A stretch of 64,000 bases of DNA, taken from Capitulum mitella. Lineage: Eukaryota > Arthropoda > Thecostraca > Pollicipedomorpha > Pollicipedidae. The stretch is from NCBI GenBank assembly GCA_030062745.1, contig CP099848.1, forward strand, positions 6,379,685 through 6,443,684. The letters are read 5' to 3'. This document shows positions 2,821 to 56,218 of this stretch, piece by piece (the first letter of the stretch is position 1; each line of letters starts with the position of its first letter). Made by a program: the position numbers and the translations under genes. The notes beneath the pieces are model-generated. The model saw only the letters and a program-made list of their open reading frames with translations, had not been told where the DNA came from and made no database searches.

Positions 2821-2823
2821 TAG

Positions 2824-13410: not shown

Positions 13411-14904
13411 TGCCTGCTTAAATAGGATGAGAAAAACAAAGATTAACTTGCATTGGAAGTAACCTGTGGTGCATACTGTGACTGAAAAAGACAGTAGTTG
13501 TAGCCAAGAGGTTTCCACCTGGCCACTAAACCATTATTTGAAATGCACAGTGTAGATGTTTTCATTTGCTTGTAATGTACATTGACCTGCTCCCTTTTTA
13601 TGTGGGAAGAAGGCACTGGTTTGCCAGCCTATGTTTTTATATATAAGAAATTATTTTGAAAAGAAACAAAATATGCGAAGGAAATTTGCAGTGCACATTG
13701 TGCCATACCACATGTTTTCATCTTTTGCATGAGTTTAGCTGTCATAAGGTATTTCACTGAAGAAGCTTCAAAGATTGCAGTGATTCATTTGTAAGTTTTT
13801 TTTGGTTAATCATGTGCACTTCTGATCTGGTTTCCTGTGCACTCATGGTTTTTGGCCTTAAATGAAAATTATCTTTACCTTTTTTCTAGGCTGAGTACTA
13901 GAGTGCTCAGCCAGTGGCATCCCAGATTGTTGTTCATGAATTTTAATCAGTCTGGCTAATTCTGAGGCAGACATGTTAGTTCATTTGATTAGTGACTTAT
14001 TTTTCTCACACAGATATATTTGCTGGAAAATCAAAAATTAAATTAAATCATATGAACATTCGAATAAAAAGACAGCCTACCAGCTTAGTTGTTGGAAGAA
14101 CAAAAAGACATCTTCCTTGGAATGCCCAAAAAAGGGAAAATTTACCAACTTCAATTTATACTGAAAGACTCACTGCAGTTTGCTGACTGAAGAGTTTTGC
14201 AAAATTTGATACCTAATTCCTTTCTGCAGTGCCTCATATGTGGGTTTTTTGATTGTGTCAGAAGTTGGTAAATATTTCTTCACTTTTATTTGTTCATCCC
14301 CTATCCGGAATTCGGTGACTAGGAATGCTGAGGCCTGTATCTGCCATACTGCACAGACCTATAAACTGGATGAATATAGACTGGAATGAAACATTTTCGA
14401 AAAAAAGAGAAAAAAGAAAAAGAGACTGGATGTTGTATTTACTAACTGAAGAACTTGTAGCCCGTCATGTTCATAAGAAAAAACGGCTATTTTGTGTGGT
14501 AAGATCTTCGCTTGTATGCGATTCTAATGCACCTGTCCCATCGCAGCGAAGGAAGTTACTTATGTCTGTGAGAACCGATCCTGCAACCCACCACCCATAT
14601 CCTTCCCATTTCCCAGCGCCCAAACCATTTTCTGCGAGACGACAACCTCTCACGTTATCGTAAACTAAAAGAACGGCGGCGCGCAAGCGACAGAAGCTGA
14701 CGGCGACGTATTGACGATAAACAGATCCTTTTGAAATGTTCCGGGCCACGCGAGAGCTCTCGCGCTGGCCTCGTATTTGAGCGCCCGGCCCGCAGTTCCA
14801 GTGTCGTGCTCGTCAGTGGCGCCGCTACTGGCCCGGCTGTGGCGTGCGACCGTCCGCGTGCGACCCCCAGCTGAACGACTCGTTCGAAACTAGCCCGAGA
14901 CACC

Positions 14905-16002
14905 ATGCTGAGCACTCTGCTGACATCGGCCAGGTCGGCCTCGCTCGTCTCAAGGTCAGTCGGTGCCCGGGATTGGCGCTGAAGGTCACCGGTCGGCGTC
15001 CGCTGGCCGGCAGCGTCCGAACCGTGTCAGCGACGCTGTTGCCATGCTGTGGGAGAAACGTGTCTCTGTGTATTTACTGTGGATTTGTTGATTGACAGTA
15101 GTTTTATGGGTGTTAGTATGAGCCTTTCTGCTGGGTGTTCGTCTCCTGCACCGGAAAAAGGGGCGTGCATGCATGATGTAACACCCGGTCGTAGAAAGGT
15201 GTATGAATCCCTACGGAAGGCAGGTTATCGCTGTTTTGTATTCTACCGTTCACTGACGTGGGCAGCGTCATCTCATAAACCGTTATGTCTCGACGGAAAT
15301 AAGTGATGTGCAAGTGAGGAAATGGTAGACATTTATTTTAAGCATACCTAAGCATTTACTGCCATTCGTTTCTGGTCACAGCAATGGGACTGCGTTTGAA
15401 TGTTTATATTCCCAGTATTGTTTGGGTTTGGAATGACTGCATGGTTTAGACCTAGTTCTGAAGTCGACGCCTTTTTCCTAATACGCCGTTAATGTGTGAA
15501 GTAACGCGATGTCTACGATCGTTGCCTTTCTGACGATGCATATGGTGCACATTAGGGGTGCACACACAGCAGTCACATTGCTCGGAAAGGTTTGCCTGGA
15601 TTTTGCTTTACGGTGAAACCCCGTGCTTATTTAAGCCTTTGTAGCCCCATATGTACTCAACGTGCAGCTGCAGGTGATGGCTGGTGTTGTGCTCAAAACT
15701 TAACTTGCCGTTGAAGACATTGCGGGAGCGATTGGTATGATTCTTTATCAGCCGGCTGCTAGCCGACGTGTGGCCATATGTGCAGTAAACATGACCTAAC
15801 GTCTCTATTTACAAATGTGACACTATTGCCTCCGGTGGACGACACTCCGGCGCAGTGGTTTCAGCCGTTGCTGGACTCGCGTCTCTCTGTCGTCTGTGAC
15901 GCGTCTCACGTCTCCCTCTCCACGGTTGTCTCGGCTGACCTTCGCCCGGTGCCGGCAGCGCTGTCCGGGCGTCCCCCTGCCTGGCTCGACAGCTGAGCAG
16001 CG

Positions 16003-16039
<37 letters not shown>

Positions 16040-19000
16040 ACGTGAGGAGGGGCGCCGGCGCGCCGCCGCCCGGCTGGCCGCCCTGGGCGGCGGCGCCGCG
16101 CTGCTCGGCGTCGGCGCGTGGCTGGCGCACGAGCGGCGTCCGCTGGCGGCGGCCCGCGCGCCAGCGCCGGCCTACGGCGAGCGGCGCAGCGACCTGCCCA
16201 CCTTCTCCATGGACGAGGTGTCGCGGCACGCCGACCTCGAGAGCCGCGTCTGGCTCACCTACAACCAGGGCGTGTACGACGTCACCGACTTCGTCAAGAA
16301 GCACCCCGGTACGGCGCCGGGGCCGGCCGGCCTGGCGCGGCTCCGGCGGGCGGCGGCGATCCGGCCGCGGCGCGCTGGCCGGAGCGGTGGCGTGCCGTTC
16401 GTGTCGTGTAATCCGTTTGGCCGTCGCCCTTGGCATTCGCTTATGCCAGCGCCCGAGAACCGTATCCGGTATATGAAGCATGCCGTGCGGGGTTGCTGCC
16501 GGGGTTTCATCAGCCCGCCGCCCGGCTGCACAGCGCTTCCGGCCGCTGTGCTGCCGTTGTGCAGACTGCAGTTCTGAACGCTTACGTCCCGTGCAGCGTT
16601 CTGGCTGCGTCCCAGCGGCTGCTGACCTCTGGCCGCGCTGCCTTCAGGTGGAAGCTCCATCATGATGGGCGCCGGGGGCTCGGCCGACCCGTTCTGGGAC
16701 CTCTACGCCGTCCACAAGCAGGAGCACGTGCTGAAGCTGCTGGAACAGTACCGCATCGGTGAGCTCTGCGCGGTGCGTCTGCCACTCCCCCCCACTCGAT
16801 GCTGATCTCTGGATTTCCTGGAAATAATAAGGTTGGCGAAAAACACAAGGACGGCAAGGCTGCCTCTGCGTGACACAGTTTACCCTCAATCGTCAGTGCT
16901 TGCTCGGCCTTGTTCATTGTTGGTCAGCCGGAGAAGCAGACGAAGCCGGCAGTGCTTGTGGAGGACGCCGCTGGGCGGTGCTGCTGTCGGTAGAAGTAAT
17001 CCTGCAGCTGTGCAAACTTTTCCTGACGGGGAGGTCAGCGCTTCCGTCGATTGTTGGTGTTAGCCCGTGTGCATTCAGGGTCCGTCGCTGTGTGCGCTCG
17101 GTGTTGGTGTTTGCTGGAGGTGCGTGAATCAGTTGTGTGCATCACTACTCAGTACTGTCCAGCGCGGGATCGCGCCGTGGACAGTCACGAGGGTGTTAGG
17201 TTATTCGTCTGCACGTCACTGCGGTCCGCATGGGAGTCTGAGAAAAAACACCATTAAGTGTCGAAAGTTCGGCCTTCAAAGTCCAGTAGATCGTAAATTA
17301 ATGAAGATCGATGCAAAGGGTACATCCATTGGTTTTCCTGCTCCTCCTCGGAGTACGCCGCTGTCTCAGTCTGCCCGCCGACGTCTCCCAGGCGTCCGGC
17401 TGCTGACGGCGCCGCGTCTCCCCCTCAGGCAACGTGCGGTCGGACGAGGTGGGCTCGCACCGCGCCGGCATGACGGACGACCCGTGGGCGGCCGAGCCGC
17501 GCCGTCACCCGGCCCTCCGGCCCAGCTCGCGCACGCCCTTCAACGCCGAGCCGCCGCCGGCGCTGCTCGCGGACAACTTCCTCACGCCCAAGTGAGCCGG
17601 CCGGCCGGACCTGGGGGCGCACCGCGCGGCGGGGTTGGCTGGGCGTGGCCCGGCAGTCGGAGTCTGCTGAGTCGTCGGGGCCGTCTGTTGTGGTGCCTTC
17701 TGGTCTGTTCGGATGTGCACTGTGCGATGAGAAATTGCGCGATTGGAAATGTTAGGGTCCAGGTAGTTAAAAATTTCAAGCTCTTTAATTTAGTTGCGGC
17801 AGGAAAATCCGTCAAAATATGTTACTGAATTATAGTGTTGACATGGGGACGATTTAGTTCGCGCTTTATGCATGCTCGGTGATTTTTTTAAATATTGTTC
17901 CTCTTGTGCAGCATTCGTGGCTAAGAAGCATTTGCTACAGTGGTTGCACTTACGAAGACGTCGTTTGCGTGTTTTAGTGCCATGTTGTGGAGAAAGTGTG
18001 GTGCTTTAATTTTCTTGCGTGCAGACGTGCAGACGCCTCGTCGATGTTAAGTGCATTCAGTAATCGATTGGATCGTTCATCAGCGGACGCCTTCTGTACC
18101 GCCATGGACCGTTCACCGGAGCTTATGTCACTGGAGCCAGGCCGAGCCCGGCCGAGCGCCGATCTGTTCATACCGAGTCCAGCTGAGCGCCGATCTGTTC
18201 ATACCGAGTCCAGCTGAGCGCCGATCTGTTCATACCGAGTCCAGCTGAGCGCCGGTCTGTCCATACCGAGCCCTGTCGAGCGCTGGTCTGTTCGGGCTGA
18301 ACTGTCTGGGCCTGTGTTTGACCAGACCGGCGGCTGTTGCAGCGACCTGTTCTACGTGCGCAACCACCTGCCGGTACCGGTGGTGGACGAGGCTGCCTAC
18401 GAGCTGGAGGTGGACGGCGTGGGCGTGCGCGGTCTGACGCTCAGCCTGGACCAGCTGAAGAAGGACTTTGAGCCGGTCACCGTCACTGCGACGGTCATGT
18501 GCGCCGGTCAGTGCCTCTGTCGACTCGACACGGTGTCGCCGTTGTGTCGACACGGTGTCGCTGTTTCGTCACGGTGTCGCTGCTCTCTCGACACTGTGTC
18601 TCCGCTCGCGACAACCGCCTCCTCACGGTCGGTCATCGGCTTCGACACCACGCGTCCGTCATAACGACGACTCCGTCACGGCCGTCACACCGAGAACCAT
18701 GTCACGCACGTCACGCCGAACGCCCTGCCACGCCGTCACACAGACCACCCTGCCGCGTCCGACCGCCCTGTCACTCCGTCACGCTGACGGCTCTGTCACG
18801 TCCGTCACGCCGGCCTGTCAGTCTCGAGCCTTGTGACTGTGACGCGCTGGCTGGCCTGTGACTGTGGCCGCCGGCCGCCGGTCGCCACTCTGTGAGGCTC
18901 GTCGGTTCGTCGGCTCGAGGCGCGGCTAGCCAGCCGCTGGACGGGCTGGCGGCCGGCGGCGGCCGCCCGGCTGGCGCCCGGTAGCCGCTGCCCGGCAGGC

Positions 19001-21387
19001 GACTGACGGCCGCGGCCCGGCAGGCGACTGACGGCCGCTGTCCGGCAGGTAACCGGCGGAGCGAGATGTCGGCCGTGAAGAGCGTGCGCGGCCTCTCCTG
19101 GGGTCACGCGGCCGTGGGTAACGCGACCTGGACGGGCGCCCGGCTCACGGACGTGCTGCGCGCCGCGGGATACGACCTGAACAACGCGGCCGGTAAACAT
19201 GTCTGCGTGAGTACCCGCCGGGCGCCGAGAGAGGGATGGCGGGCTTCGCCACGGCGTGCGGAGCGGTTAGAGGGGGAAGGGGAGCGTTGTTTTTGTGTTT
19301 TTCCGCCACTCTGTGCGAAACATGCTGGAAGTCATGTGCTGTCATTGCAGGCCTTGGTCCTAGTCTTAGTTTTTCTTTGGGATTCTTTGTCGTGTCAGTC
19401 TGCTTGTCAGCCCCGCTTTGATGTATTTTTTGATGAGCTTCTCGCCTATCTGCAGTGAAGAAATCAGCGTTTACTGCTTATGTGTTGTAGGTAAAAGTGG
19501 CATTGCTGTGGTCTTGTAGCGTGTACTACTGATAAGCTGGGGAGAGCAATATCCCGCAATGCTAACACGTGCCGTTACCAGCTCCCGTGAGATAAATCCT
19601 CGCATCCCCTGCTGCCTCTTCCTCCCGAAGCGCTAGAAACAGTGCCCCATTCATTCCCCGTTCCTCCCGGCTCCTCCAGCTCCCACCGGTCCTCGGTCCC
19701 GACTCCGCCTCCAGCGCGCGCCCCGCCCGCCTGACCGTCCGCTGTCGGGGCCGGCAGTTTGAGGGTCTCGACACGGACCCGTCCAACACGCCGTACGGCG
19801 CCTCGGTGCCGCTGCAGACGGCGCTGGACCCGCGCCGCGACGTGATCCTGGCGTACGCCATGAACGGCCAGCCGCTCAGCCGCGACCACGGCTTCCCGGT
19901 GCGCGTCGTCGTGCCCGGCGTGGTCGGCGCCAGGAACGTCAAGTGGCTCAGTGAGTGGCGGCCGGCCGGCGGCGCCTGCGGCGTGGCGGCGGGCGTCGGA
20001 CCGTCTTCTGGTGCGGTCGTCGGGGGCGGCGAGTGCCCGTAGTGAGCCAGGTGTGGGTGTGAGGGGGTGTGTCGTTGTTGTCGCATGAGCCGGCAGGGGT
20101 GTTTTCGTTGTCCCAGCTTGGGACCGGGATTGGAGACTGTCCAGTGGCGCATGTCTGCGTCTTGTCCTCCGCCTCCACCTTCGTTTCGATGCTTCTGAGT
20201 TGCTCTGGGACATGCAACTCACAGTGATGTGATGGCGTCGCCGTGGCGTGCTCCATTTGTCCAGGTGCGGTCTACAGACCAGTCCTCTGTAGACTGCAGA
20301 CTTTAGACTGTGGACTAGACTGTAGACTGACACTTTGCCCCCGGCCGGTGGGCGGCCGCTGACCAGACGGCTGTCGCCGCCAGGCCACATCACCGTCTCG
20401 GACGAGGAGTCCACCTCGCACTGGCAGCGCAGCGACTACAAGGGCTTCAACCCGTCCGTCGACTGGGACAATGTCGACTTCAGCAAGTCGCCCGCCATCC
20501 AGGACCTGCCCGTGAACTCGGCCATCTGCTGGCCGGGAAGCGGCGACACGGTCAAGGTCAAGGACGGCACCATCTCCGTCAAAGGTGAGGTCATGGTCGC
20601 ACCCTGGATCAGGTGACCCTTTGGAGACGAGTCAGAGTCGTACATGGGGTTATCGCGTAATGGTTAAGGAGACGGGTGCACAGGTAGGCTCTTCATCAAG
20701 CAACGTTCCTGGGCGACCAAGTTGGAGATGATCGTCGCCTTGAATCGAATGCAGATCTGTATAACGTTGGTTTGTTCTCAGTGAATCATGTCTGGTTTTC
20801 ACATATTTATGATTCATAAATTGTCAGCAAAGACGGCACTGATCGTATACCATCCGACGGAAATCACAAATCCACGCGGCACCAACAGGGCAAATGGGTC
20901 GAGAGCCCCCATTCTCTGGCCTTTTACATTGGATCTCCTTGATCACCGTACTCCTAACCTCAGCGAGCGCGCCTGACGGTCGTCGTCTGCCCCGCCCCGG
21001 GCCCTCTCTGGCGCCGCCGGTATCTGTCGGCCCACGACTTGGAGCCCCCGAGCCAGCTGACCCCCCTCCCCCCCGACAGGGTACGCCTGGAGCGGCGGCG
21101 GCCAGCGCGTGGTGCGCGTGGACGTGTCGGCCGACGGCGGCGCCACCTGGCACGAGGCGCGCCTGGACGCCGCCGAGCGGGAGGCACCGGCCGGCCGCTG
21201 CTGGTCCTGGAGCCTGTGGTCGGCGCGCGTGCCCGTGCCGGCCGGCGCCGACGCGGCCCAGCTCTGGGTCAAGGCCACCGACGCCAGCTACAACACGCAG
21301 CCCGAGTCGTTCAAGAACATCTGGAACCTGCGCGGCGTGCTGAGCAACGCCTACCACCGGGTGGACGTCAAGCTGAAGCGGCTGTAA
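14905..21387 (+). CDS. SUOX: Sulfite oxidase, mitochondrial, copy A (nine exons, 551 aa)
   Basis: Oxidises sulfite to sulfate in the mitochondrial intermembrane space and passes electrons to cytochrome c; last step of sulfur amino acid breakdown. Exons: 14905-14954, 16001-16308, 16648-16758, 17429-17591, 18343-18506, 19049-19206, 19758-19950, 20384-20584, 21080-21387. All have GT-AG borders and compatible phases. Residues 1-17 ([16 protein letters not shown]) look like a mitochondrial presequence. Poly-Gly is at 19-30 and a hydrophobic segment at about 42-59. The cytochrome b5 domain is at about 82-157 with heme ligands H118 (KKHPGG) and H142 (YAVHKQEHV), 24 residues apart as in the family. 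The molybdopterin domain has R217 (VRNHLPVP) and the molybdenum-ligand Cys C264 ([10 protein letters not shown]). The dimerisation domain at about 390-551 ends in [14 protein letters not shown]. Length is close to the vertebrate enzyme (about 545 aa). The gene appears intact. Confidence 0.96.
16005..16037 (+). repeat. (GGC)11 microsatellite coding poly-Gly in sulfite oxidase copy A
   Basis: Eleven GGC codons followed by GGA lie immediately after the exon 2 acceptor. Copy B has nine GGC codons and also lacks the preceding GAC, so the proteins differ by three residues here. The tract lies between presequence and hydrophobic segment, outside the catalytic domains. Confidence 0.9.
18154..18300 (+). 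repeat. 31-bp minisatellite in sulfite oxidase intron 4, five units
   Basis: Units starting gagcgccgatctgttcatac begin at 18154, 18185, 18216, 18247 and 18278, exactly 31 bases apart. Copy B has only three units (44220, 44251, 44282), so the array has changed length since the copies separated. Confidence 0.9.
18520..18835 (+). repeat. Degenerate GTCAC/GTGTCG-rich simple repeat in intron 5
   Basis: Many gtgtcg words (to about 18,600) and then cgtcac words (18,650-18,835) recur at irregular short spacing. They create long but meaningless ORFs in several frames. The same tract is in copy B, slightly shorter. Confidence 0.6.
20643..20720 (+). other. tRNA-like box A in intron 8, possible old SINE
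   Basis: The words tatcgcgtaatggttaagga resemble the D-arm and box A of a tRNA. I cannot fold a full cloverleaf or find a clear box B, so this is at most a relic of a tRNA-derived element. Copy B has the same sequence with one change in the box. Confidence 0.25.
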
Positions 21388-21814
21388 CGCCCTGAACGGC
21401 GGCGACCGTTGGCGGCGGCGGCCTCAGAGGCTCTCTGCGGACAGGAAAGTAGGGGGTTAGCTGGATGGATCAGTCAGGTAGGAGTCAGTTCGCTGATGGT
21501 ATTGGGATCAAGTCGGCCGGTAGTTTGGCGTATATTCGGTCGGTGTGCCATACGGCGTACAGCGTTGCTGTGCCATTATTAAGGCCGGATGTAGACGTGA
21601 CGTCACACGGGGCTCGGCCGCCGGACGGCACGGACACCGGGCTGGGAGGACTGACGAACTGGACCGCGTGTCGACTGTGAACAACAGGCAGCGTGCTTAC
21701 CACTAGTCTGCTGTTGACGGACAGGATCTACGTCACTCTTGTCATGAGAAAACAGCAGCTTGACAGGCAGGATGTCTGCCATGAGTTCTTTTGATATGCA
21801 TGGTCTTTGCCACG

Positions 21815-22080
21815 CTTTTCCCCAGACGCCACGGTCGCCAAGCGTTCTCTCTTCGCTTGGATGCTGGGTTGCCAAGCGTCATTTTTAGACGCGGGGTCAC
21901 CAAGTCGCCAACCATCCTGTCTTCAGACGCGGGGTCGCCAAGCACCCTGTCTTGAACGCGGGGTTGCCAAGCGTCCCCTCTAGACGTGGGTCGCCAAGCG
22001 TCCTGTCTTTAAACGCGGGGTCGCCAAGCACCCTGTCTTTAGACGCGGGGTCGCTAAGCGTCCCCTCCGTAGACGGCTGG
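21815..22080 (+). repeat. About 33-bp minisatellite downstream of sulfite oxidase copy A
   Basis: About eight imperfect units with the core gacgcggggtcgccaag and spacers such as caccctgtcttta or cgtcccctctagac follow the 3' flank of the gene. Unit number appears the same in copy B. Confidence 0.85.
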
Positions 22081-23680
22081 TAAATTTCGCGCTGCTGTTG
22101 TGATAACCTGTATGTCCGTTTGAATCAGCCGAGTGCCGCCGCTGCCACTACTCTCAGAGGGCCGACTATCCTGCAGTGGTTGTTGAACAGCCGCTGGTGT
22201 TTGGTTATCGCCGACCGTCGATTAGCAGGTGGCGCGGGGCGAAGCGTGCCCTCCCCCCGCCCAGGAAGGTCGCCGGTGTGTTGTCATCTGTGGTCGGCCC
22301 GAGATCGTAGTCCTCGGTGCGGCGATGCGTCTGTGACGTGCGAAGTCGGCTGGAGACTGGGGAAGGCTGTGGCCTGTTGTGAGCGGGGTGTAAATGTGTT
22401 GCCGTGCCAAGCTTTGCAGCAAAAACAAAGGCAAACTCCATCCTTTCGCGATCGCTTGCCTCCGTAGGAAAGATCATGATCGCAGTGAGAACTTTTCGTT
22501 TGTTGGTTTGCGAGATTATTGCGAGAAGTTAGTAAAAGACCTTGCTTTGTTTTTGACATAAGATTTGTTTGTTATGTAAAAAAGTAAATGCAGTTATAGT
22601 GAGGCTACCCATGCAATAATTTTGTCACGTGTTAATTACATTTTGTTACCTTTCATGCTTCTCTTAAAATCTAGTTTACCATGGATGGGGGTTGTACATA
22701 CATGTGAAGTAATGTGATAGTGGGGTTGCGATATGAGACTGCCATATGTACTGTTTGGACTGATTTCAGGGGAATAACAGGTGCTGGGTAAGTAAACATT
22801 TCCGAGGTGGCTGTCGTTAATTTGTATATGTTACGCGTTGTTGTTAAGGGTACACTAACTGTACACTAACTACAGGATACACCACTAACCACGTTTGACT
22901 GTGAAATGCTGAAATGTTTGTTGTATTCTAATATAGTGTAGTAATGTAGACTTTGAAGTTTTGGTTATACTGGTGTTACTGGTGAGGACGGAACAGGACA
23001 AAATGTCGAGTGAAAAGTATTAAAACCAATAGCCAGGCACAAAATACCGAATAAATTGAATAGGAGAGATGAATATCATTGTACGTGGGCAAAACGCACA
23101 CGAGGGTTGAATATTGCAAATGCAGAATTATATGGCGAAACATGATGAAAGGTACCTCAAGGTATCCCGTGCGGAATATCGAACAGGATAAACACTGATA
23201 TGCTACGATTTAAATGCATGTGATGTGTGCAGAGAGCCAACATATCAACGTCTCGGATGACACCACCAGTTCAGATTTTCAAGGCCCCTGCGATCGGTGC
23301 GCGCACCGCCATCGTTCTGTCAGAGACGCTAAGGTCGTTACAACGAAGCATTAACCCGCCCCCTTCACTATGAGAACACCTCCGACGGAAAACCGCCAGG
23401 GGGTTGAACGCGACCAGTGCCATCTATTGATTGGCGCCGAAAGCTGAGGTCTCTGCACCTGAGTTTTGTACATTGACTTCATGTGTATGTCTTTATGTCC
23501 GATGTCATTTTCGCAACAAATGAATAAATAAAATGGTTGTCGCGGAAGAAATCGGAGAGGTTACTGACAACCAGTCGTGGGGGTTTTCTTCAGTCAACTT
23601 GCAGACGGCGTAGCAGCCCGTTAACGTACTCGGGCAGTTTGACGTAGAGGTCCGGCCGGCGGCCGCAGCCTATTGAGTCA
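22081..23680. other. 3' flank of sulfite oxidase copy A, no gene recognised
   Basis: AT-rich from about 22,480. The first AATAAA I noticed downstream of the stop is at 23,050-23,055 and another cluster is at about 23,518-23,530. Either could end the sulfite oxidase transcript, but both are more than 1.6 kb from the stop codon. A local doubled word (tacactaac) near 22,850 has a different length in copy B. Confidence 0.4.
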
Positions 23681-23849
23681 CCAGATGACAAGGAGCCAGA
23701 CGCCACGAAGCGTCTGCTGGCCTGGTCTCGTCAGATCACCGGGCCGCCCCCGACGCCGCCTCGACGCCGCCGTCAGTCGACCTCGGGCAGCACCTGTGCC
23801 CGCCGTCAGGAGCAGGCCGCCGTGCACCCGGGGCGCGACAGGAGTGGTC

Positions 23850-27200: not shown

Positions 27201-27560
27201 CTCTTTAACACCAGGTCGGCGCGACCCCGGCGCTGCATATCTTGCACAGCAGCACGCGAGAGTGTCCGCCCACCGTCAACCCCGCAAGCCGGGCAGAGCG
27301 GTGTGTCAGCGGGCGTCCCACGCCTCCGTGTGGCAACGGACAGCCGGTACCAGATGGCCGCCGGGACTCATTATCGGCGCAAAATGCGCCCGGACGATCA
27401 GCTCCCGGCACAAGTGGTCCCTCCGCACGGGGCACACTCGCCCCTACTTAGCTCTCATCAACGCAGCTGACAAACTGGCCGCGTCACCGGACCGCCCTCT
27501 CGTGAGTCTTGCGTGCAGGGGTGCCAGGCTCAGAGCGCGTCCAGCGTCCTCGTCCGCAAC
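27201..27560 (+). promoter_or_regulatory. GC- and CpG-rich promoter-like region before the secreted-peptide gene, copy A
   Basis: The DNA becomes GC-rich about 350 bases before the ATG at 27561, without TATA box. The long overlapping ORFs here (106 and 152 aa) follow from composition. It probably holds the transcription start and 5' leader. This is an inference from position and composition. Confidence 0.35.
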
Positions 27561-38994: not shown

Positions 38995-39494
38995 NNNNNN
39001 NNNNNNNNNNNNNNNNNNNNNNNNNNNNNNNNNNNNNNNNNNNNNNNNNNNNNNNNNNNNNNNNNNNNNNNNNNNNNNNNNNNNNNNNNNNNNNNNNNNN
39101 NNNNNNNNNNNNNNNNNNNNNNNNNNNNNNNNNNNNNNNNNNNNNNNNNNNNNNNNNNNNNNNNNNNNNNNNNNNNNNNNNNNNNNNNNNNNNNNNNNNN
39201 NNNNNNNNNNNNNNNNNNNNNNNNNNNNNNNNNNNNNNNNNNNNNNNNNNNNNNNNNNNNNNNNNNNNNNNNNNNNNNNNNNNNNNNNNNNNNNNNNNNN
39301 NNNNNNNNNNNNNNNNNNNNNNNNNNNNNNNNNNNNNNNNNNNNNNNNNNNNNNNNNNNNNNNNNNNNNNNNNNNNNNNNNNNNNNNNNNNNNNNNNNNN
39401 NNNNNNNNNNNNNNNNNNNNNNNNNNNNNNNNNNNNNNNNNNNNNNNNNNNNNNNNNNNNNNNNNNNNNNNNNNNNNNNNNNNNNNNNNNNNNN
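38995..39494. other. Assembly gap of exactly 500 N
   Basis: The run is exactly 500 N, a typical fixed scaffold-gap size, so the true distance is unknown. Duplicated copy B begins 26 bases after it. Confidence 0.99.
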
Positions 39495-42071: not shown

Positions 42072-42102
<31 letters not shown>

Positions 42103-45100: not shown

Positions 45101-47364
45101 CGCCACCTGGACGGGCGCCCGGCTCACAGACGTGCTGCGCGCCGCCGGGTACGACCTGAACAACGCGGCCGGTAAACATGTCTGCGTGAGTACCCGCCGG
45201 GCGCCGGGAGAGGGATGGCGGGCTTCGCCACGGTGTGCGGAGCGGTTAGAGGGGGAAGGGGAGCGTTGTTTTTGTGTTTTTCCGCCGCGCTGTGCGAAAC
45301 ATGCTGGAAGTAATGTGCTGTCATTGCAGGCCTTGGTCCTAGTCTTAGTTTTTCTTTGGGATTCTTTGTCGTGTCAGTCTGCTTGTCAGCCCCGCTTTGA
45401 TGTATTTTTTGATGAGCTTCTCGCCTATCTGCAGTGAAGAAATCAGCGTTTACTGCTTATGTGTTGTAGGTAAAAGTGGCATTGCTGTGGTCTTGTAGCG
45501 TGTACTACTGATAAGCTGGGGAGAGCAATATCCCGCAATGCTAACACGTGCCGTTACCAGCTCCCGTGAGATAAATCCTCGCATCCCCTGCTGCCTCTTC
45601 CTCCCGAAGCGCTAGAAACAGTGCCCCATTCATTCCCCGTTCCTCCCGGCTCCTCCAGCTCCCACCGGTCCTCGGTCCCGACTCCGCCTCCAGCGCGCGC
45701 CCCGCCCGCCTGACCGTCCGCTGTCGGGGCCGGCAGTTTGAGGGTCTCGACACGGACCCGTCCAACACGCCGTACGGCGCCTCGGTGCCGCTGGAGACGG
45801 CGCTGGACCCGCGCCGCGACGTGATCCTGGCGTACGCCATGAATGGCCAGCCGCTCAGCCGCGACCACGGCTTCCCGGTGCGCGTCGTCGTGCCCGGCGT
45901 GGTCGGCGCCAGGAACGTCAAGTGGCTCAGTGAGTGGCGGCCGGCCGGCGGCGCCTGCGGCGTGGCGGCGGGCGTCGGACCGTCTTCTGGTGCGGTCGTT
46001 GGGGGCGGCGAGTGCCGGTAGTGAGCCAGGTGTGGGTGTGAGGGGGTGTGTCGTTGTTGTCGCATGAGCCGGCAGGGGGTGTTTTCGTTGCCCCAGCTTG
46101 GGACCGGGATTGGAGACTGTCCAGTGGCGCATGTCTGCGTCTTGTCCTCCGCCTCCACCTTCGTTTCGATGCTTGTGAGTTGCTCTGGGAGATGCAACTC
46201 ACAGTGATGTGATGGCGTCGCCGTGGCGTGCTCCATTTGTCCAAGTGCGGTCTACAGACCACTCCTCTGTAGACTGCAGACTTTAGACTGTGGACTAGAC
46301 TGTAGACTGACACTTTGCCCCCGGACGGTGGGCGGCCGCTGACCAGACGGCTGTCGCCGCCAGGCCACATCACCGTCTCGGAAGAGGAGTCCACCTCGCA
46401 CTGGCAGCGCAGCGACTACAAGGGCTTCAACCCGTCCGTCGACTGGGACAATGTCGACTTCAGCAAGTCGCCCGCCATCCAGGACCTACCCGTGAACTCG
46501 GCCATCTGCTGGCCGGGAAGCGGCGACACGGTCAAGGTCAAGGACGGCACCATCTCCGTCAAAGGTCAGGTCATGGTCGCACCTGGATCAGGTGACCCTG
46601 TGGAGACGAGTCAAGGTCGTAGATGGGGTTATCGCCTAATGGTTAAGGAGACGGGTGCACAGGTAGGCTCTTCATCAAGCAACGTTCCTGGGCGACCAAG
46701 TTGGAGATGATCGTCGCCTTGAATCGAATGCAAATCTGTATAATGTTTGGTTGTTTTCAGTGAGTCATGTTTGGTTTTCACATATTTATGATTCATAAAT
46801 TGTCAGCAAAGACGGCACTGATCGTTTACCATCCGACGGAAATCAGGAATCCACGCGGCACCAACAGGGCACACGGGTCGAGGGCCCCCATTCTCTGGCC
46901 GTTTACATTGGGTCTCCTTGATTACCGTACTCGTAACCTCAGCGAGCGCGCCTGACGGTCGTCGTCTGCCCCGCCCCGGGCCCTCTGGCGCCGCCGGTAT
47001 CTGTCGGCCCACGACCTGGAGCCCCCGAGCCAGCTGACCCCCCTCCCCCGCGGCAGGGTACGCCTGGAGCGGCGGCGGCCAGCGCGTGGTGCGCGTGGAC
47101 GTGTCGGCCGACGGCGGCGCCACCTGGCACGAGGCGCGCCTGGACGCCGCCGAGCGGGAGGCACCGGCCGGCCGCTGCTGGTCCTGGAGCCTGTGGTCGG
47201 CGCGCGTGCCCGTGCCGGCCGGCGCCGACGCGGCCCAGCTCTGGGTCAAGGCCACCGACGCCAGCTACAACACGCAGCCCGAGTCGTTCAAGAACATCTG
47301 GAACCTGCGCGGCGTGCTGAGCAACGCCTACCACCGGGTGGACGTCAAGCTGAAGCGGCTGTAA
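40977..47364 (+). CDS. SUOX: Sulfite oxidase, mitochondrial, copy B (nine exons, 548 aa)
   Basis: Exons: 40977-41026, 42073-42371, 42712-42822, 43493-43655, 44347-44510, 45028-45185, 45737-45929, 46364-46564, 47057-47364. Splice sites and phases match copy A, and the frame is open to TAA. The protein differs in a poly-Gly tract shorter by three residues (one Asp, two Gly) and two conservative changes (Gln338 to Glu, Asp389 to Glu, copy A numbering). The other coding changes I noticed are silent. Heme His pair, active-site Arg and molybdenum-ligand Cys (C261 here) are retained. The exon 8 donor is gtcagg in place of gtgagg, still acceptable. The mostly silent differences indicate purifying selection on both, or simply two alleles of one gene. 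Confidence 0.95.
42074..42103 (+). repeat. (GGC)9 plus GGA, poly-Gly tract of sulfite oxidase copy B
   Basis: Nine GGC codons then GGA follow the exon 2 acceptor. Two units fewer than copy A. Confidence 0.9.
44220..44300 (+). repeat. 31-bp minisatellite in sulfite oxidase intron 4, three units
   Basis: Units begin at 44220, 44251 and 44282. Copy A has five. Confidence 0.9.
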
Positions 47365-49660
47365 CGCCCTGAACGGCGACGACCGTTGGCGGCGGCGGCC
47401 TCAGAGGCTCTCTGCGGACAGGAAAGTAGGGGGTTAGCTGGATGGATCAGTCAGGTAGGAGTCAGTTCGCTGATGGTATTGGGATCAAGTCGGCCGGTAG
47501 TTTGGCGTATATTCGGTCGGTGTGCCATACGGCGTACAGCGTTGCTGTGCCATTATTAAGGCCGGATGTAGACGTGACGTCACACGGGGCTCGGCCGCCG
47601 GACGGCACGGACACCGGGCTGGGGGGACTGACGAACTGGACCGCGTGTCGACTGTGAACAACAGGCAGCGTGCTTACCACTAGTCTGCTGTTGACGGACA
47701 GGATCTACGTCACTCTTGTCATGAGAAAACAGCAGCTTGACAGGCAGGATGTCTGCCATGAGTTCTTTTGATATGCATGGTCTTTGCCACGCTTTTCCCC
47801 AGACGCCACGGTCGCCAAGCGTTCTCTCTTCGCTTGGATGCTGGGTTGCCAAGCGTCATTTTTAGACGCGGGGTCACCAAGTCGCCAACCATCCTGTCTT
47901 CAGACGCGGGGTCACCAAGCACCCTGTCTTGAACGAGGGGTTGCCAAGCGTCCCCTCTAGACGTGGGTCGCCAAGCGTCCTGTCTTTAAACGCGGGGTCG
48001 CCAAGCACCCTGTCTTTAGACGCGGGGTCGCTAAGCGTCCCCTCCGTAGACGGCTGGTAAATTTCGCGCTGCTGTTGTGATAACCTGTATGTCCGTTTGA
48101 ATCAGCCGAGTGCCGCCGCTGCCACTACTCTCAGAGGGCCGACTATCCTGCAGTGGTTGTTGAACACCCGCTGGTGTATGGTTATCGCCGACCGTCGATT
48201 AGCAGGTGGTGCAGGGCGAAGCGTGCCCTCCCCCCCGCCCAGGAAGGTCGCCGGTGTGTTGTCATCTGTGGTCGGCCCGAGATCGTAGTCCTCGGTGCGG
48301 CGATGCGTCTGTGACGTGCGAAGTCGGCTGGAGACTGGGGAAGGCTGTGGCCTGTTGTGAGTGGGGTGTAAATGTGTTGCCGTGCCAAGCTTTGCAGCAA
48401 AAACAAAGGCAAACTCCATCCTTTCGCGATCGCTTTCCTCCGTAGGAAAGATCATGATCGCAGTGAGAACTTTTCGTTTGTTGGTTTGCGAGATTATTGC
48501 GAGAAGTTAGTAAAAGACCTTGCTTTGTTTTTGACGTAAGATTTGTTTGTTATGTAAAAAAGTAAATGCAGTTATAGTGAGGCTACCCATGCAATAATTT
48601 TGTCACGTGTTAATTACATTTTGTTACGTTTCATGCTTCTCTTAAAATCTAGTTTACCATGGATGGGGGTTGTACATACATGTGAAGTAATGTGATAGTG
48701 GGGTTGCGATATGAGACTGCCATATGTACTGTTTGGACTGATTTCAGGGGAATAACAGGTGCTGGGTAAGTAAACATTTCCGAGGTGGCTGTCGTTAATT
48801 TGTATATGTTACGCGTTGTTGTTAAGGGTACACTAACTACACTAACTACAGGATACACCACTAACCACGTTTGACTGTGAAATGCTGAAATGTTTGTTGT
48901 ATTCTAATATAGTGTAGTAATGTAGACTTTGAAGTTTTGGTTATACTGGTGTTACTGGTGAGGACGGAACAGGACCAAATGTCGAGTGAAAAGTATTAAA
49001 ACCAATAGCCAGGCACAAAATACCGAATAAATTGAATACGAGAGATGAATATCATTGTACGTGGGCAAAACGCACACGAGGGTTGAATATTGCAAATGCA
49101 GAATTATATGGCGAAACATGATGAAAGGTACCTCAAGGTATCCCGTGCGGAATATCGAACAGGATGAACACTGATATGGTACGATTTAAATGCATGTGAT
49201 GTGTGCAGAGAGCCAACATATCAACGTCTCGGGTGACACCACCAGTTCAGATTTTCAAGTTCCATGCGATCGGTGCGCGCACCGCCATCGTTCTGTCAGA
49301 GACGCTGAGGTGGTTACAACGAAGCGATAACCCGCCCGCTTCACTATGAGAACACCTTCGACGGAAAACCGCCAGGGAGTTGAACGCGACCAGTGCCATC
49401 TATTGATTGGCGCCGAAAGCTGAGGTCTGTGCACCTGAGTTTTTTTTTTACATTGACTTCATGTGTATGTCTTTACGTCCGATGTCATTTTCGCAACAAA
49501 TGAATAAATAAAATGGTTGGCGGGGAAGAAATCGGAGAGGTTACTGACAACCAGTCGTGGGGATTTTCTTCAAAGTCAACTTGCAGACGGCGTAGCAGCC
49601 CGTTAACGTACTCGGGCAGTTTGACGTCGAGGTCCGGCCGGCGGCCGCAGCCTACTGATC
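47365..49660. other. 3' flank of sulfite oxidase copy B, minisatellite then no gene
   Basis: The roughly 33-bp minisatellite (core gacgcggggtcgccaag) lies at about 47,792-48,057. The rest is AT-rich and matches the 3' flank of copy A, with a longer poly-T run near 49,441. Confidence 0.6.
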
Positions 49661-49829
49661 ACCAGATGACAAGGAGCCAGACGCCACGAAGCGTCTGCTG
49701 GCCTGGTCTCGTCAGATCACCGGGCCGCCCCCGACGCCGCCTCGACGCCGCCGTCAGTCGACTTCGGGCAGCACCTGTGCCCGCCGTCAGGAGCAGGCCG
49801 CCGTGCACCCGGGCGCGCGACAGGAGTGG

Positions 49830-50930
49830 TCCGAGACGAGAGGCACCGAAACGCTGCGCAGCGCATCCCAAGCTGGTGTTGGTCCGAACTCGATGTCATC
49901 AGCATGCAGCCGTAGGCACAGCATTGTGATGTGTGGCAGGTCCGGAGTGTTGGTGAAGAGGTAACGCACGCTGTGGCTGGCTACGTTGAATTCCTACTGG
50001 AGCAACTCCCCCTCGCCAAAGCTGTATGGAGGCGTCATTCGGGAGACAGATGAGAAGTACTTTACTTTAGGCTTGTACGGAAACATGCTCATAAAGCCCT
50101 TTACAAAGCACTCGCCTTTGCTGTCGTGCCCCTGTAGCCCTTGTGGCCTTTGAGACCCTTGCCCTGGTCGCAGCCGTAGAAATACGGGCCGTATTCTCCC
50201 TAGCGTTCACCGTAGCTTTCCTGGCCTCCATAGTCTTTGCATCCTTTAAACCCCTTGTGGCCCTTCCTCTTGTAACTTTTGAATCCCTTGTGAGCTTTGG
50301 AGCCGTGGAAGACCCCAAATGCTTTGTTTCTTCCGTATCCATAGGTACCATAATCCAGGTCATGATGGTCGTCATAATTGTTTTGGCCTTTGCCATAGAA
50401 ACCGAAGGTCCGTACGATCTGAAGCTGCGGTCTCCTACGCGTACGAGTAGAAACTAAGCGGTGCGTCCACCAGGCAGGGAACGACAAGGCCGCCACCTCG
50501 TGGACCCACGCCACGATAATACCACCACACTGTGCTTGTAGCCCTTCAAAACCGGTCATTCACCAGGCGCCCGTGCCACGGAAACTGACCGTATTGGAGG
50601 CAGCGCTGCCCGGGCCGACCAGAAAAGGACAGGTGACCTCGTCGGCCTGCGCTTGGCGTTGGCCGCAGTCGGCCGGCAGCAGCCTGAGTCGCTGGCTGTG
50701 GGAATACGATTGAGGCGCACCGCCGGCGTGGCGGCGGTGCCGGCGACGCGCAGACCGCCACCAGCAGAGCTGGAAGACAAACGGTGCCGCCCAGCAGCCT
50801 CGCCGCCCTCTGTCGCTCATTGTCGCGAGCCGCGCCGCCGGCCGAATGAGGCCGCGGACGGCGGCCGGCTGCTGCCGGGACTTCGGCGGCGCTTTCAGGC
50901 AAAACCGGACCTCATAAATGTTCAGGCCTT
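49830..50930 (-). pseudogene. Decayed serine-protease-like locus, copy B
   Basis: It has the same arrangement as 23,850-24,960, including the shared in-frame TAG (50200-50202 here) after YGGQESYGER and the shared frame changes around YGQFPWHGRLVND and QCGGIIVAWV. It also has its own new nonsense change: CAG GAG GAA of copy A reads CAG TAG GAA here (plus-strand cta at 49994-49996). This supports the view that the locus is dead or dying. Confidence 0.45.
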
Positions 50931-52750
50931 GCGACTTAAAACAGCACCTTTGCAAATACCGGCGGGGTCTCATGTGCGGTGGACCTACCACACAGCACTG
51001 TCCCAGATAGGTGTGAAAAACGCGGCAGCACTGTAATGTCACGTTAAAAACTCGTCAGACGTTCACGGAAAAATACGAGCCGGTGCCGTTACGATGAAGA
51101 TTTTTTAGCACAACTGCACGAAAAAATAACAGTCACCATTCGTTTTCCTATGCTGATGGTTGTAACATCATTTTCCGTTAACCACCATTAGCGAATTAGC
51201 ACCATGCTGTTCCATTATACATTGCGCGCGCTCCACGATGCTAGAACACGGTGCGTGCTTGCAGCTCCGATTGAAACGGTCGGTGGGAGCTGGAGAAGCC
51301 GGGAAGAGCGGGATCTGAAAGGGAAACTGTTTCCCGCGATTAAACAGCAAGAATGAGGCAAGAGTTGAATGACGGTGGCCACGTCTTCACTCGGTTCCTG
51401 TATTTGCCGGAGCTCTATGACCCTTCAGGTCATTGCAAAGCTGTAAGGACGCAAGTTTTGCGGATGTGAGGGGGAGCGACACCGACCAGAAGAAAGACGT
51501 TCTAGCAGAGAGACGTTCTGGAGCCTTAAATTTTATGCTGGTGGCGCTACAGCGCGACTTGGCGTCACGAATTCCCAGGGTGATGATCAGTGAGACTCAT
51601 TTGGCAGAGCCTTCTGCCAACAGCTGGCCGTTCTCAGGGGTAAGTGGACTAGTTAACCCCCGGCAGATGAGGAAGGTACCTCCTTTCCATGACTTTCCCA
51701 AGAATGCCGGCGAATGGACCGCAAATTCACGGTAGCTGATTTTACATGCTTTTCGCATCATTCCCCCTTCAAAAATGATATGATCGGGTTACATCAGGCC
51801 ACTGAACTATGACATCGTTATTGAGGGCTTCAAACCATTTTTCTGCATCTGAGCTAGGTTTGGCTTCTTTCTCAGAAGTCTGGCAACGTATGGAATCAGT
51901 TTGTTTTACGTAGAATTTCGACTTATGATTGATATCGGGATAAGAAAAGTTAGTGGTATTTCCAAGTGCAAATAATATCACTGGCCTAATGCGGCCTCAG
52001 AATCAAATTTAAACCAGTCTTAATAAAGCAACCTTTGGCGTCATTGTCAGCAATGAAACAATTATTACTCCTCTCGGCGTTAAGAACTTTAACTTGCGAA
52101 ATAAAGTTATACGGTTTGTTGAAGTCTGAACACCAATTCGCTGCATAAACTTGTGGACTATGTTCGAAATCATGTTTCGTTTGGCACTTCACGGACGTAA
52201 AAAAATCGCCTGAATCTGCTTCGTGGTTTCACAACTGAATCAGTTGCAAGGTAAAACTGCACCAGCTTTATTTTCTGATCCGTGCTGTAAGGGAACATAT
52301 CGGACATATGCCACAACCGAAAACTAAAATAGCGCAAACAAATCTCGTGATACATGCACAAGAGGAAAAAATGTTATCTGTGACCTCCAGCGGCAACGAC
52401 AATCAGCACATTTGTTGTGAGACGTTCGGCACTTTTGGTACGATCAGCGTCATATAGTGTGGTAGGGACGTTCGACCTAACTATTGATTAACAACTACAG
52501 ACCTATTTCTTGACAGCAAGCCATGGAGAAATGACGATGCGGCCGTAACTGTCATCGGATAATCAATGTTTTAACTGTTTTCCAGGCTCAGTGCAACTAA
52601 ATCTTATACATGGGTGTCTGGCGTCAGTGATCTCTGCACTCACGCCCTCGTTTGAGTTAAGGTCATTTTAGGTTAAAACCATGAATTGGCGTTTATTTTG
52701 CACTTGTTATTGAACACGGATGGGTCAGGATCTGACCGGAAACGCTGGTT
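50931..52750. other. No convincing gene, copy B counterpart of 24,961-26,788
   Basis: It matches copy A. The 124-aa minus-strand ORF of copy A is broken here by a CGA to TGA change (plus strand 'gagactcat'), which argues against coding function. A minus-strand ORF at 51,769-51,981 is open in both copies but has several amino-acid changes and no clear exon borders. Confidence 0.4.
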
Positions 52751-52753
52751 TAC

Positions 52754-52896
52754 CTAGCAGCAATAGTTTGCGCTTATATTCATCGTCAGAAATCGTCGTG
52801 GCCCCCTCAAAAGCTCTTTCTTGGTTACGTGCCGTAGAATTCCATGCAGACCGGAATCTAATCGCCTGATCTCGTTTGAGGTTGCCTGGAAGGTCA
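52754..52896 (-). CDS. Candidate orphan exon on the minus strand, copy B
   Basis: The block has a pyrimidine-rich acceptor (tcttaaatcatacag) and a donor (ctag, gtaaac). One frame is open across it and reads LPGNLKRDQAIRFRSAWNST then ERAFEGATTISDDEYKRKLL. Another open frame is also protein-like, so the choice is uncertain. In copy A the acceptor is mutated (AA for AG). No partner exons were found. Unrecognised; perhaps a remnant. Confidence 0.25.
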
Positions 52897-53525
52897 CTGT
52901 ATGATTTAAGAAAAGTAAAACAGGGTATCGAGGTATCGATGCACAGCCAAACGACTAAGCTACGTGCTCGCTTTTGTTTCTCGCTCTCTGATGTCAAGTT
53001 CGGAAATGGCTAGGGAGAGGGGATATCCCCATTTAACTCCTGCACTGTCGACGGCGGTCATACAGCGAATAATGGCAAGGGTTAACGGAATAGTTGGTAG
53101 AATATCGTGGGAACATGATTAGGAATGCTACGGCCACGACCCATGCTACCAATCACTCTTGTCGGCTCTTCAACACCAGGTCGGCGCGACCCCGGCGCTG
53201 CATATCTTGCACAGCAGCACGCGAGAGTGTCCACCCACCGGCAACCACGCAAGCCGGGCAGAGCGGTGTGTCAGCGGGCGTCCCACGCCTCCGTGTGGCA
53301 ACGGACAGCCGGTACCAGATGGCCGCCGGGACTCATTATCGGCGCAAAATGCGCCCGGACGATCAGCTCCCGGCACAAGTGGTCCCTCCGCACGGGGCAC
53401 ACTCGCCCCTACTTAGCTCTCATCAACGCAGCTGACAAACTGGCCGCGTCACCGGACCGCCCTCTCGTGAGTCTTGCGTGCAGGGGTGCCAGGCTCAGAG
53501 CGCGTCCAGCGTCCTCGTCCGCAAC

Positions 53526-55332
53526 ATGGTCGACGTCCGGGTGCTCGTGGTCGTGGTCTGTGCGTCACTGCTTGCCCTGGTAGGTGCCCTGACTCGTGTG
53601 TCACGGATGTTACAAAGCTGGGGTCTTGTTTCGCATTTGTAAAATGTGTTCCCGAAATGCGTTGTCTGCAGTAGCATTGACAATGATGCGATTCCGTAGC
53701 TGAAAGGAAATTGCGAATCTGTGTGGTGTTCCTATTAAAAAACGGAGCGTATGTGCAGTCAAGGGTACGGGACTGCCATTTTACATTTCATTCCGTTTGG
53801 TCTGTCAGTTGTGCGGTCAAAAAGGGATCTTTCATAACACTCTGATGGCAATGAGATTCCTCACGCGTCACTAGGCCTGACACCTACATGGTAAATGGCC
53901 GAAGACTGTTATTTCCTGTATCGGGGCCATCAAGAGACCATCAGTCATCATAAAGTCTGTTGACGTCTTGATACGCCACTTACCGAAATGGTACACTAAA
54001 CGAGAATAACACCATCTCCCCAAAACAGCAAACAAAACACGAAAACGTGTAATACTTCACTCTTTCACTTTTCTCACATGAGCTGGTCTGAAGCAATCAT
54101 TTGATGCAACACTTCTGACAAATGAATGTTTTACGTCATACACCATGTTCCGGAGACCAGGGCTGTTTCCTGCGTCCGTTTCTGTCGAGTTCCTGAGCCT
54201 AATGAGTACCACGCGTGCTGACCTCACGCTGGTCTCCTGTATTGGCCATTTTTACGGTATCGGATGCATCCAGAAGTAACTGGGGATAGCAGTTTCCGAT
54301 TTGTTGCAATGTGCACAACATTACAACCAGTCGTAACTCTGTCGCTCCGGGTCTCTTTGAGTCACATCCTGTCGTACTTGCGCTCTCCTACTTCGGATCA
54401 GCGGTCGTGTTTTGGCAAAGCAGGGTCTCCTTGCGACCATTCTTTGGCATGCTTGGTTATAGCAACGTCAAGGAAACTCATCTAATGGGACCGGCAGTCC
54501 TCAGATATGCCCGCAGCTCACGTTGCCTGTGCCCATGTGAATGTGTTTCGCTAAGTTTGGCTTTCCCACGCACCCAGGGTTCTGCGAACCAGGCGGTCGT
54601 TTCCGGCGATCCTCTCATGGTCCGCCGCGCCCCCTCCGTGGTGGAGGTGCTCGATCGGCACGTGTTCCAGACCGACTACCCCGACAAGGACAACGTGCTT
54701 CAGGAGATGGCGAAAACTGCGTACGTCGAAGTTTTGTAAGTAACGTCAACTTTTTCATCTTCATTCAGAACAGTTTGATGTCGATTCCGCAGACCGATCG
54801 GATGCGACTCATTACCTTCATGAAGATGCATATTACACGTTAATTTCAGCGCGAGACTGAAATGAACCCCAACACAGATGTTCGTGTTTAATGTTTCGTG
54901 GTCTAATTCTAATCGCGTCTTCAGAGCTATTATAAGTACCCCAGTGTAAGCGGTAAGACTTCTTCCCACTACGTGTGATGCTTCAACAGATATCGCTCTA
55001 TTTGCCCCCCGCATGCAGTGTGCTCTTGTCCGTGATTTCTAGCTCGCTTCGTTTAGGTATGGCTTTTAAGTAGCACATACTTTTGCCTCCTGATTTTATT
55101 TATTTTTGCAGTAGTTTCAGGCGCAAATAACGTTCAACAAAAATGCTTCAGCAATTTCGTAGAATGGCCCAAACCGTCTTTGCACCTTATAGCCAGGTCA
55201 TTGCACTGGCTGTGGTGGCATCATTGGTTAAAGATGAACTTATTGTCATTTTGTGTTGTTTCCAGGTGTCAGGGCTGCATATTTGGTGACGACAGTTGCG
55301 GACCAGAAGAGCGGTCGTCCATTTTCCACTGA
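53526..55332 (+). CDS. Unidentified secreted peptide precursor, copy B (three exons, 92 aa)
   Basis: Exons: 53526-53579, 54578-54735, 55266-55332, with the same donors, acceptors and phases as copy A. Signal peptide reads MVDVRVLVVVVCASLLAL. One further change (Ser to Asn, DKDNVLQEM) lies in the pro-region. The three-Cys tail of exon 3 is identical. The first base after its stop codon region differs (gagtag versus gagtgg), but the stop itself is kept. Conservation of every splice site and of the tail supports a real gene, though two alleles of one locus would look the same. Confidence 0.55.
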
Positions 55333-56218
55333 GTAGTGTCGCAGCAAGACGAAATACTGTACTTTTGGCTGACGCGAAAAATGGAGTCGGAAAACATGTG
55401 GATCAAAGTGCCGAGAGTTTAATACCAGTTCAGTGTAGCATGCACTGAGAAAGCATGACAACAGGAATATAGTGTTTTTAAACTGTTATTTTTTTACTCG
55501 CAAGGCATTAATCGACAGAAAGTGAAACACGTCCTTCGATCCTGCAATTTTTTTTCCAAAACGACGTCATGAAGACGATGGAGGTCAAAACCACATGCAA
55601 TCTGCACATTCAACGTGTTCTTACATTCAACGTGAGCCGTTAATTTCCTACAAAGCTGAAGCGTACACAACAGTATTTTTATGGCCAAGGGAGTAAAAGG
55701 GAGACAGGCTGCCCACTTCAGTCAGACGACTATAAAACCCACATATTAATGTGTATGGATGTTTTTCGCACAGCAGACGGATTTGGGTCTATCTAGGGTT
55801 TCCGTTGCAGGGCCCTCTGTCATTTATGACGTGCAGTAGTGCGAGTTAGGTGGCAGCACTGTATATAAGTATATGACCACACGGCGCACGCGATATAGGG
55901 AAGAGGGCTATCTTATTCACCCCTCAGGTATAAATGACGAGACTTAAGGTATCTGAATCGTTATTATTGTTGAAACATTGCATTTCATTATGATCGTAGT
56001 GTTTCATGAGTTGCTATGTAGACATGCGTTACATCATTGCTTGTCAGAAGAGCATAACATTTGTGCTAGGGAAACGCTAAAGATATGCTATAAAAGGAAA
56101 CCACACCTACCCCTTGTGACGTTTGTGACAATCAGTTCCTGGTTACAATTACTGGATTTGCGGCGATTTTTGATGCAACATTCCCATTACCGTTTCTGGA
56201 AGCTTTCCAGTCTTGGGT

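What the first reader, a model, noticed from the sequence alone, without database searches (positions are those of the whole stretch)
13451..55998. A 16.6-kb segment is present twice, but may be two haplotypes placed in series
13,451-30,041 and 39,521-55,998 are near-identical with scattered substitutions and indels in all classes of sequence. Copy B starts 26 bases after a 500-N scaffold gap, and divergence of about 2 % by eye is normal between alleles in highly heterozygous invertebrates. A simple tandem duplication should join the right end of copy A directly to the left end of copy B, yet 9 kb of unrelated DNA and a gap lie between. Either an insertion followed a real duplication, or an allelic contig was scaffolded next to its partner.
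Basis: partly seen in the sequence, partly recalled or inferred. Interest (0 to 1): 0.75.

Follow-up and report, generated by a model that had tools for sequence, protein, structure and literature searches.

The report
Two alleles misassembled as a duplication
The 16.6-kb 'duplication' is almost certainly the two parental versions of one stretch of an animal chromosome laid end to end by the assembly, because one version carries a large mobile element in which the assembled piece broke off; it is an ordinary artefact that makes one sulfite oxidase gene look like two.

Summary
The repeat is real in the sequence: 13,451-30,041 and 39,521-55,998 align over 16,454 columns with 308 substitutions and 28 indels. 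It is most likely two alleles in series, not a duplication. The '9 kb of unrelated DNA' (30,042-38,994) is the left part of a multicopy mobile element with a fixed left end after unrelated flanks (13 places read, the window's included). The left contig stops inside it: two other copies continue about 1.36 kb further. The right contig carries the same flank without the element and runs into DNA with no near-identical second copy: an empty site. Of the 26 bases between gap and copy B, 14 match DNA 339 bases upstream of copy A, so homology runs on to the contig end. A second gap, on C6, has the same layout, with the empty site at the base noted beforehand. This fits the published artefact 'false heterotype duplication'. 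Both copies carry an intact-looking sulfite oxidase gene, to be counted once. No reads were available; coverage remains the direct test.

The parts
13107..13441 (.). about 335 bases present beside copy A but absent beside copy B: inferred allelic indel between two ATTAA words (13107-13111 and 13442-13446)
   Evidence: 14-base match of the 26 bases left of copy B to 13098-13111 (E 0.012 over 264 kb); equalled in 0 of 2986 random 400-base and 0 of 1481 random 2-kb stretches of the neighbourhood, same strand; ATTAA words read directly
13451..30041 (+). copy A: allele on the left-hand contig, followed by the mobile element
   Evidence: self-BLAST and alignment; two full-length copies in the genome of the two parts searched
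15939..21387 (+). sulfite oxidase gene of copy A, 8 exon cores found, stop codon at 21385-21387 (exon borders approximate; true start of exon 1 not fixed)
   Evidence: Pfam Cyt-b5 and Oxidored_molyb in two exons; PDB sulfite oxidases for one exon; the other exons read by eye from open frames
30042..38994 (.). left 8,953 bases of a mobile element longer than 10.3 kb, cut off by the end of the left-hand contig; transcription direction unknown
   Evidence: genome search; fixed left end in the 13 places read, the window's included; element continues about 1.36 kb past this point in both copies read there
33965..35179 (.). dispersed ~1.2-kb repeat nested in the element
   Evidence: matches in many places of the 264-kb neighbourhood; absent from some element copies (in at least five places matches to element positions 1-3927 and 5134-8953 adjoin)
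38995..39494 (.). 500-N scaffold gap between the two contigs
39495..39520 (+). first 26 bases of the right-hand contig; read as continuation of the left flank across the 335-base indel; one place in the genome at up to 2 mismatches
39521..55998 (+). copy B: the other allele, without the element
42011..47364 (+). sulfite oxidase gene of copy B (end mapped through the alignment, approximate)
   Evidence: Pfam for two exons; no stop or frameshift against copy A in the exon cores compared
55998..55999 (.). empty insertion site of the element on the second haplotype
   Evidence: A and B agree up to ...GATCGTA, then A continues with the element's left end and B with DNA that has no near-identical second copy for 1.87 kb

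Best explanation
Copies A and B are the two alleles of one locus in a diploid, heterozygous individual, placed in series. Shown: copy A is followed, at 30,041/30,042, by a mobile element longer than 10.3 kb that copy B lacks; the left contig ends inside the element; the right contig begins inside DNA homologous to copy A and its left flank. Inferred: the assembler could not carry haplotype 1 through the multicopy element, started a separate contig from haplotype 2, and Hi-C-style scaffolding put the overlapping contig ends side by side with a nominal 500-N gap. The locus then holds one sulfite oxidase gene, and the element insertion is hemizygous.
For: (1) The right edge of homology is the left end of a repeat family. 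Of 16 places (a capped list), 13 start at element position 1 (the others at 91-98 % identity to the window) and 3 start further inside. All 13 left ends were read, the window's included: the first 20 bases agree (at least 95 % pairwise), the 40 bases before do not (mean 30 %, max 45 %). (2) The left contig stops inside the element: both copies read beyond that point continue for about 1.36 kb at 98.5 % mutual identity. (3) No near-identical second copy was found for the right flank's bases 1-1,865 and 3,149-8,002 (a dispersed repeat lies between; one 69 % match over 325 bases) or for left flank 11,100-13,450. (4) Copy B's homology runs on to the contig end, across a 335-base indel. (5) A second gap, C6:6,260,790-6,261,289, also lies inside a copy of the element; the 151 bases after it match, at 99 %, DNA about 3 kb left of that element (11 other matches are 72-82 %). 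I noted the expected end of that flank copy, C6:6,264,425, beforehand; the 100-base match (97 %) stops at exactly that base. (6) Divergence is 2.00 % in noncoding columns (295 of 14,772) and 0.77 % in exon cores (13 of 1,682), Fisher p = 1.8e-4; with exon edges trimmed, synonymous 1.9 % and nonsynonymous 0.16 %. Noncoding substitutions are over-dispersed (index 2.8-3.7), as in alleles with mixed coalescence times.
Against: No reads, coverage or Hi-C map were available. Point 6 fits two retained paralogues almost as well, and gene conversion or uneven mutation could also over-disperse substitutions. The left-edge match rests on 14 of 26 bases; the 7 bases before and 5 after it show no clear match, and a direct alignment to the adjacent 40 bases left of A gave nothing (p = 0.50). 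No homology between the block after A and about 108 kb downstream of B was found, which alleles alone would not explain without the element. The second locus was compared over 251 bases only. The right end of the element and any target-site duplication were not seen. The heterozygosity of this individual is unknown.
Confidence: 0.95

Rival explanations
1. A true segmental duplication larger than the visible repeat: L-A-element-(R')...(L')-B-R, with the element inserted into one copy and the second copies of the flanks hidden in the gap.
For: A and B both keep an intact-looking sulfite oxidase gene. The 500-N gap is probably of nominal size and could hide DNA.
Against: No near-identical second copy of flanks 11,100-13,450 and 55,999-57,863 was found in the assembly, so exactly the missing parts would have to be hidden. 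The same layout recurs at a second gap inside the same element.
Confidence: 0.03
2. Simple tandem duplication with the element later inserted at the junction.
For: The order A-element-B fits.
Against: The element would have to land exactly on the junction. Its other end should then adjoin copy B, but the 26 bases there occur once in the genome at up to 2 mismatches, whereas the element is multicopy, and 14 of them match copy A's own left flank.
Confidence: 0.01
3. The element duplicates many kilobases of its target when it inserts, so that A and B are a giant target-site duplication, as at the second site.
For: Taken literally, both sites read flank-element-gap-flank.
Against: The 26 bases before B are not a repeated element end and partly match the left flank instead. 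The 1.5-kb left flank of the gap-free C12 copy has no near-identical second copy: the best of 39 others listed is 94 %, on C3, that flank being itself a dispersed repeat. Both repeats coincide with assembly gaps.
Confidence: 0.01

Closest known systems
False heterotype duplication (assembly artefact; Genome Biol 2022, PMC9516828, passages seen)
   Same: Two alleles in one haploid assembly, separated by an assembly gap on the same scaffold, each with a full gene, so that a gene gain would be falsely annotated.
   Different: Read depth, k-mer and read-pair criteria could not be tested. Here the break can be traced to a mobile element, present on one side only, in which the contig ends.
DNA transposon insertion polymorphism (filled and empty site; general knowledge, no paper looked up)
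   Same: Sharp junction at a fixed element end; empty site found at two places.
   Different: The right end and target-site duplication were not read; 10 open frames of the element gave no Pfam match, so the superfamily is unassigned.

Membership tests
False heterotype duplication | near-identical pair on one scaffold separated by an assembly gap | tested here: met
False heterotype duplication | allelic relation: homology continues to the contig end; no second copy of the outer flanks found | tested here: met
False heterotype duplication | half (haploid-level) read depth on both copies | not testable with these tools
   no reads held
False heterotype duplication | heterozygous (1-copy) k-mers; discordant linked reads | not testable with these tools
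   no reads held
True segmental duplication | gap-free joins at both ends of the extra copy | tested here: inconclusive
   the only join between the copies is a 500-N gap, and the left contig ends inside a repeat; a gap does not itself exclude a duplication
Mobile element (the 9-kb block) | many copies sharing one fixed end after unrelated flanks | tested here: met
   13 of 16 places start at position 1; all 13 left ends read, the window's included
Mobile element (the 9-kb block) | empty site at the same position | tested here: met
   window 55,998/55,999 and C6:6,264,425
CACTA/EnSpm-like DNA transposon (considered; features recalled from memory) | CAC-terminal inverted repeats, 2-3-base target duplication, transposase | tested here: inconclusive
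   left end starts CACACAG; the preceding two bases are TA in 8, CA in 4, TG in 1 of 13 places; right end not read; no Pfam match in 10 frames

The most novel reading that the evidence does not exclude
A mobile element whose insertion leaves many kilobases of flanking DNA duplicated on its other side (A-element-A), so that the two sites seen are real giant target duplications, one with a sulfite oxidase gene, rather than allele pairs.
Probability: 0.01. Interest if true: 0.85.

Novelty: not a real feature. Interest (0 to 1): 0.13.

Why it matters
It warns against counting two sulfite oxidase genes, or a recent segmental duplication, in this assembly. It also gives a concrete cause and a search rule: wherever a contig ends inside this element, look after the gap for a restarted flank with an empty site. 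The two such gaps that I examined both show it. The pairs also give allele divergence (about 2 % noncoding here) and presence/absence differences of an element that may have been active recently.

Tried and rejected
Alignment of the 26 bases directly against the 40 bases left of copy A gave nothing (p = 0.50). The collinear match 339 bases further left was found only by a short-word search of the neighbourhood.

A search for weak homology between the 9-kb block and DNA downstream of copy B, up to about 108 kb away, found only the nested dispersed repeat (with up to about 150 bases beside it). This first argued against alleles, until the genome search showed the block to be an element.

Classifying the element: 10 frames of 101-228 codons gave no Pfam match at E <= 0.1. 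Not scanned: 4 other frames of 85-99 codons, shorter frames, and the frames of the stretch beyond the contig end (listed).

The organism was not identified. 16 scaffolds and 477 Mb, with an ionotropic receptor-like frame and a sulfite oxidase gene, suggest an arthropod (inference). Barnacles were a guess: I saw part 1 of 3 of PMC8416341, passages, outline with abstract, and one section of PMC11331182, and passages of PMC8270832 and PMC8917513. No call ties the window to a barnacle. Scaffold lengths differ from those printed for Capitulum mitella in PMC8416341 (here 45.52 and 18.35 Mb at the extremes, there 45.43 and 19.66 Mb).

A library search for the heterozygosity of C. mitella found one paper, on plant mitochondrial genomes, not read. 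Listings were seen; of those papers only the ones named in this report were opened. That 500-N gaps are the habit of certain Hi-C scaffolders is recalled, not looked up.
Full report
OBSERVATION. The window is C10:6,379,685-6,443,684 of an unnamed 477-Mb assembly in 16 scaffolds. Comparing it with itself gives one long direct repeat with exactly the stated ends, 13,451-30,041 (A) and 39,521-55,998 (B). A global alignment has 16,454 aligned columns, 308 substitutions and 28 indels, the largest 62 bases. In 264 kb around it there is a single gap, the 500 N at 38,995-39,494. Two pieces of A, 13,451-16,000 and 22,000-30,041, each find only A and B as full-length matches in the assembly; the piece between was not searched.

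CONTENT. Both copies hold a sulfite oxidase gene: a cytochrome-b5 exon and a molybdopterin-domain exon of each match Pfam, the latter exon of copy A also solved sulfite oxidases, and six more exons were recognised by eye in open frames. Between A and B the exon cores differ at 13 of 1,682 columns against 295 of 14,772 elsewhere (Fisher p = 1.8e-4). With exon edges trimmed, 8 changes are synonymous (1.9 % of sites) and 2 nonsynonymous (0.16 %). There is no stop or frameshift in the exon cores, only a 9-base in-frame difference in a glycine run. So both copies look functional. Two alleles would look like this, and so would two retained paralogues.

THE 9 KB BETWEEN. Locally this block (30,042-38,994) matches nothing but a nested 1.2-kb dispersed repeat and short stretches beside it. 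Genome-wide it is a multicopy family: two further copies over the whole 8,953 bases (C6:25,301,992, 98 %; C12:2,743,883, 97 %), one to position 7,857 (C6:6,252,941, 98 %), and partial ones (a capped list, so counts are lower bounds). Grouped by eye, the list covers 16 places. Thirteen, the window's included, start at position 1, that is, exactly where A's homology to B ends; three (C5:25.29 Mb, C2:16.98 Mb, C2:26.19 Mb) start further inside. At all 13 the left end was read: the first 20 bases agree (at least 95 % pairwise) while the preceding 40 bases do not (mean 30 %, max 45 %). The preceding two bases are TA in 8, CA in 4 and TG in 1 of the 13. So 30,042 is the left end of a mobile element. 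In both copies read further (L047, L048) the element goes on for about 1.36 kb past the base at which the window's left contig stops. That contig therefore ends inside the element, which is longer than 10.3 kb. Its superfamily is open: 10 frames gave no Pfam match and its right end was not read.

THE EMPTY SITE. Copy B passes the same point (55,998) and continues into the right flank. No near-identical second copy of that flank was found for its bases 1-1,865 and 3,149-8,002; between lies a ~1.3-kb dispersed repeat. A 325-base stretch has one 69 % match in the neighbourhood. The left flank 11,100-13,450 matches only itself genome-wide. Thus the middle is present twice while no second copy of either outer flank was found: the pattern of two overlapping contig ends.

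THE LEFT EDGE. Those 26 bases do not continue the immediate left flank of A (p = 0.50), but 14 of them match 13,098-13,111 exactly, on the same strand (E 0.012 over 264 kb). None of 2,986 random 400-base or 1,481 random 2-kb stretches of the neighbourhood gives as good a same-strand match. The difference is a 335-base indel between two ATTAA words (13,107-13,111 and 13,442-13,446). So B's homology does not end at a duplication breakpoint; it runs on towards the contig end. The 26 bases occur once in the genome at up to 2 mismatches, so they are not the other end of the multicopy element.

A SECOND CASE. The element copy at C6:6,252,941 is also cut by a 500-N gap, C6:6,260,790-6,261,289. The 151 bases after that gap match C6:6,249,805-6,249,955 at 99 %, about 3 kb to the left of that element; 11 other matches are much weaker, 72-82 %. 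If this too is a filled and an empty allele in series, the flank copy should end near C6:6,264,425, which I wrote down before looking. I then read 200 bases there: bases 6,264,326-6,264,425 match the 100 bases left of the element (97 %) and the match stops at exactly that base, where other DNA follows instead of the element. The two gaps inside this element that I examined therefore have the same structure; I did not survey others.

CONCLUSION. The simplest account is one locus, two haplotypes: haplotype 1 with the element, whose contig dies inside the element; haplotype 2 without it, whose contig starts in the shared DNA to the left; both put in series by scaffolding. The assembler and scaffolder steps are inferred. 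A true duplication would need its breakpoint to coincide with the element's end, its flank copies to be hidden in the gap, and all this twice. Published work describes such pairs as false heterotype duplications and names gaps between the copies as a primary characteristic (PMC9516828, passages seen). High allelic divergence is on record for one barnacle, Balanus improvisus (PMC8270832, passages seen), but I could not establish that the present organism is a barnacle.

WHAT IS NOT SHOWN. No read depth, phasing or Hi-C data were available. Paralogy is made improbable by structure and parsimony, not by direct measurement. The control on gap-free insertions is thin: one (C12) was searched, and its left flank is itself a dispersed repeat, with no near-identical second copy among the 39 others listed; the search for the other (L039) did not complete.

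Noticed in passing
G000:C6:6249805-6264525: A second filled/empty pair in series across a 500-N gap inside the same element; its full extent was not read.
   Followed up: partly
G000:C5:25272079-25295604: Two near-identical partial copies of the element in the same orientation about 14.4 kb apart; may be a third uncollapsed pair.
   Followed up: no
window 30042-38994 and copies listed: A large (>10.3 kb) multicopy mobile element, copies starting at its left end 91-98 % alike to the window's, without recognised domains in the 10 frames scanned; some copies lack the nested 1.2-kb repeat.
   Followed up: partly
window 9042-11048: A 668-codon open frame matching ionotropic glutamate receptor domains, in one frame, left of copy A.
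   Followed up: no
window 33965-35179 and many places within 100 kb: A dispersed ~1.2-kb repeat, about 73-96 % alike between places, in both orientations.
   Followed up: no
C10:6458989-6460488 (L004:5305-6804), right of the window: A tandem array of roughly 24-base spacing, about 1.5 kb long.
   Followed up: no
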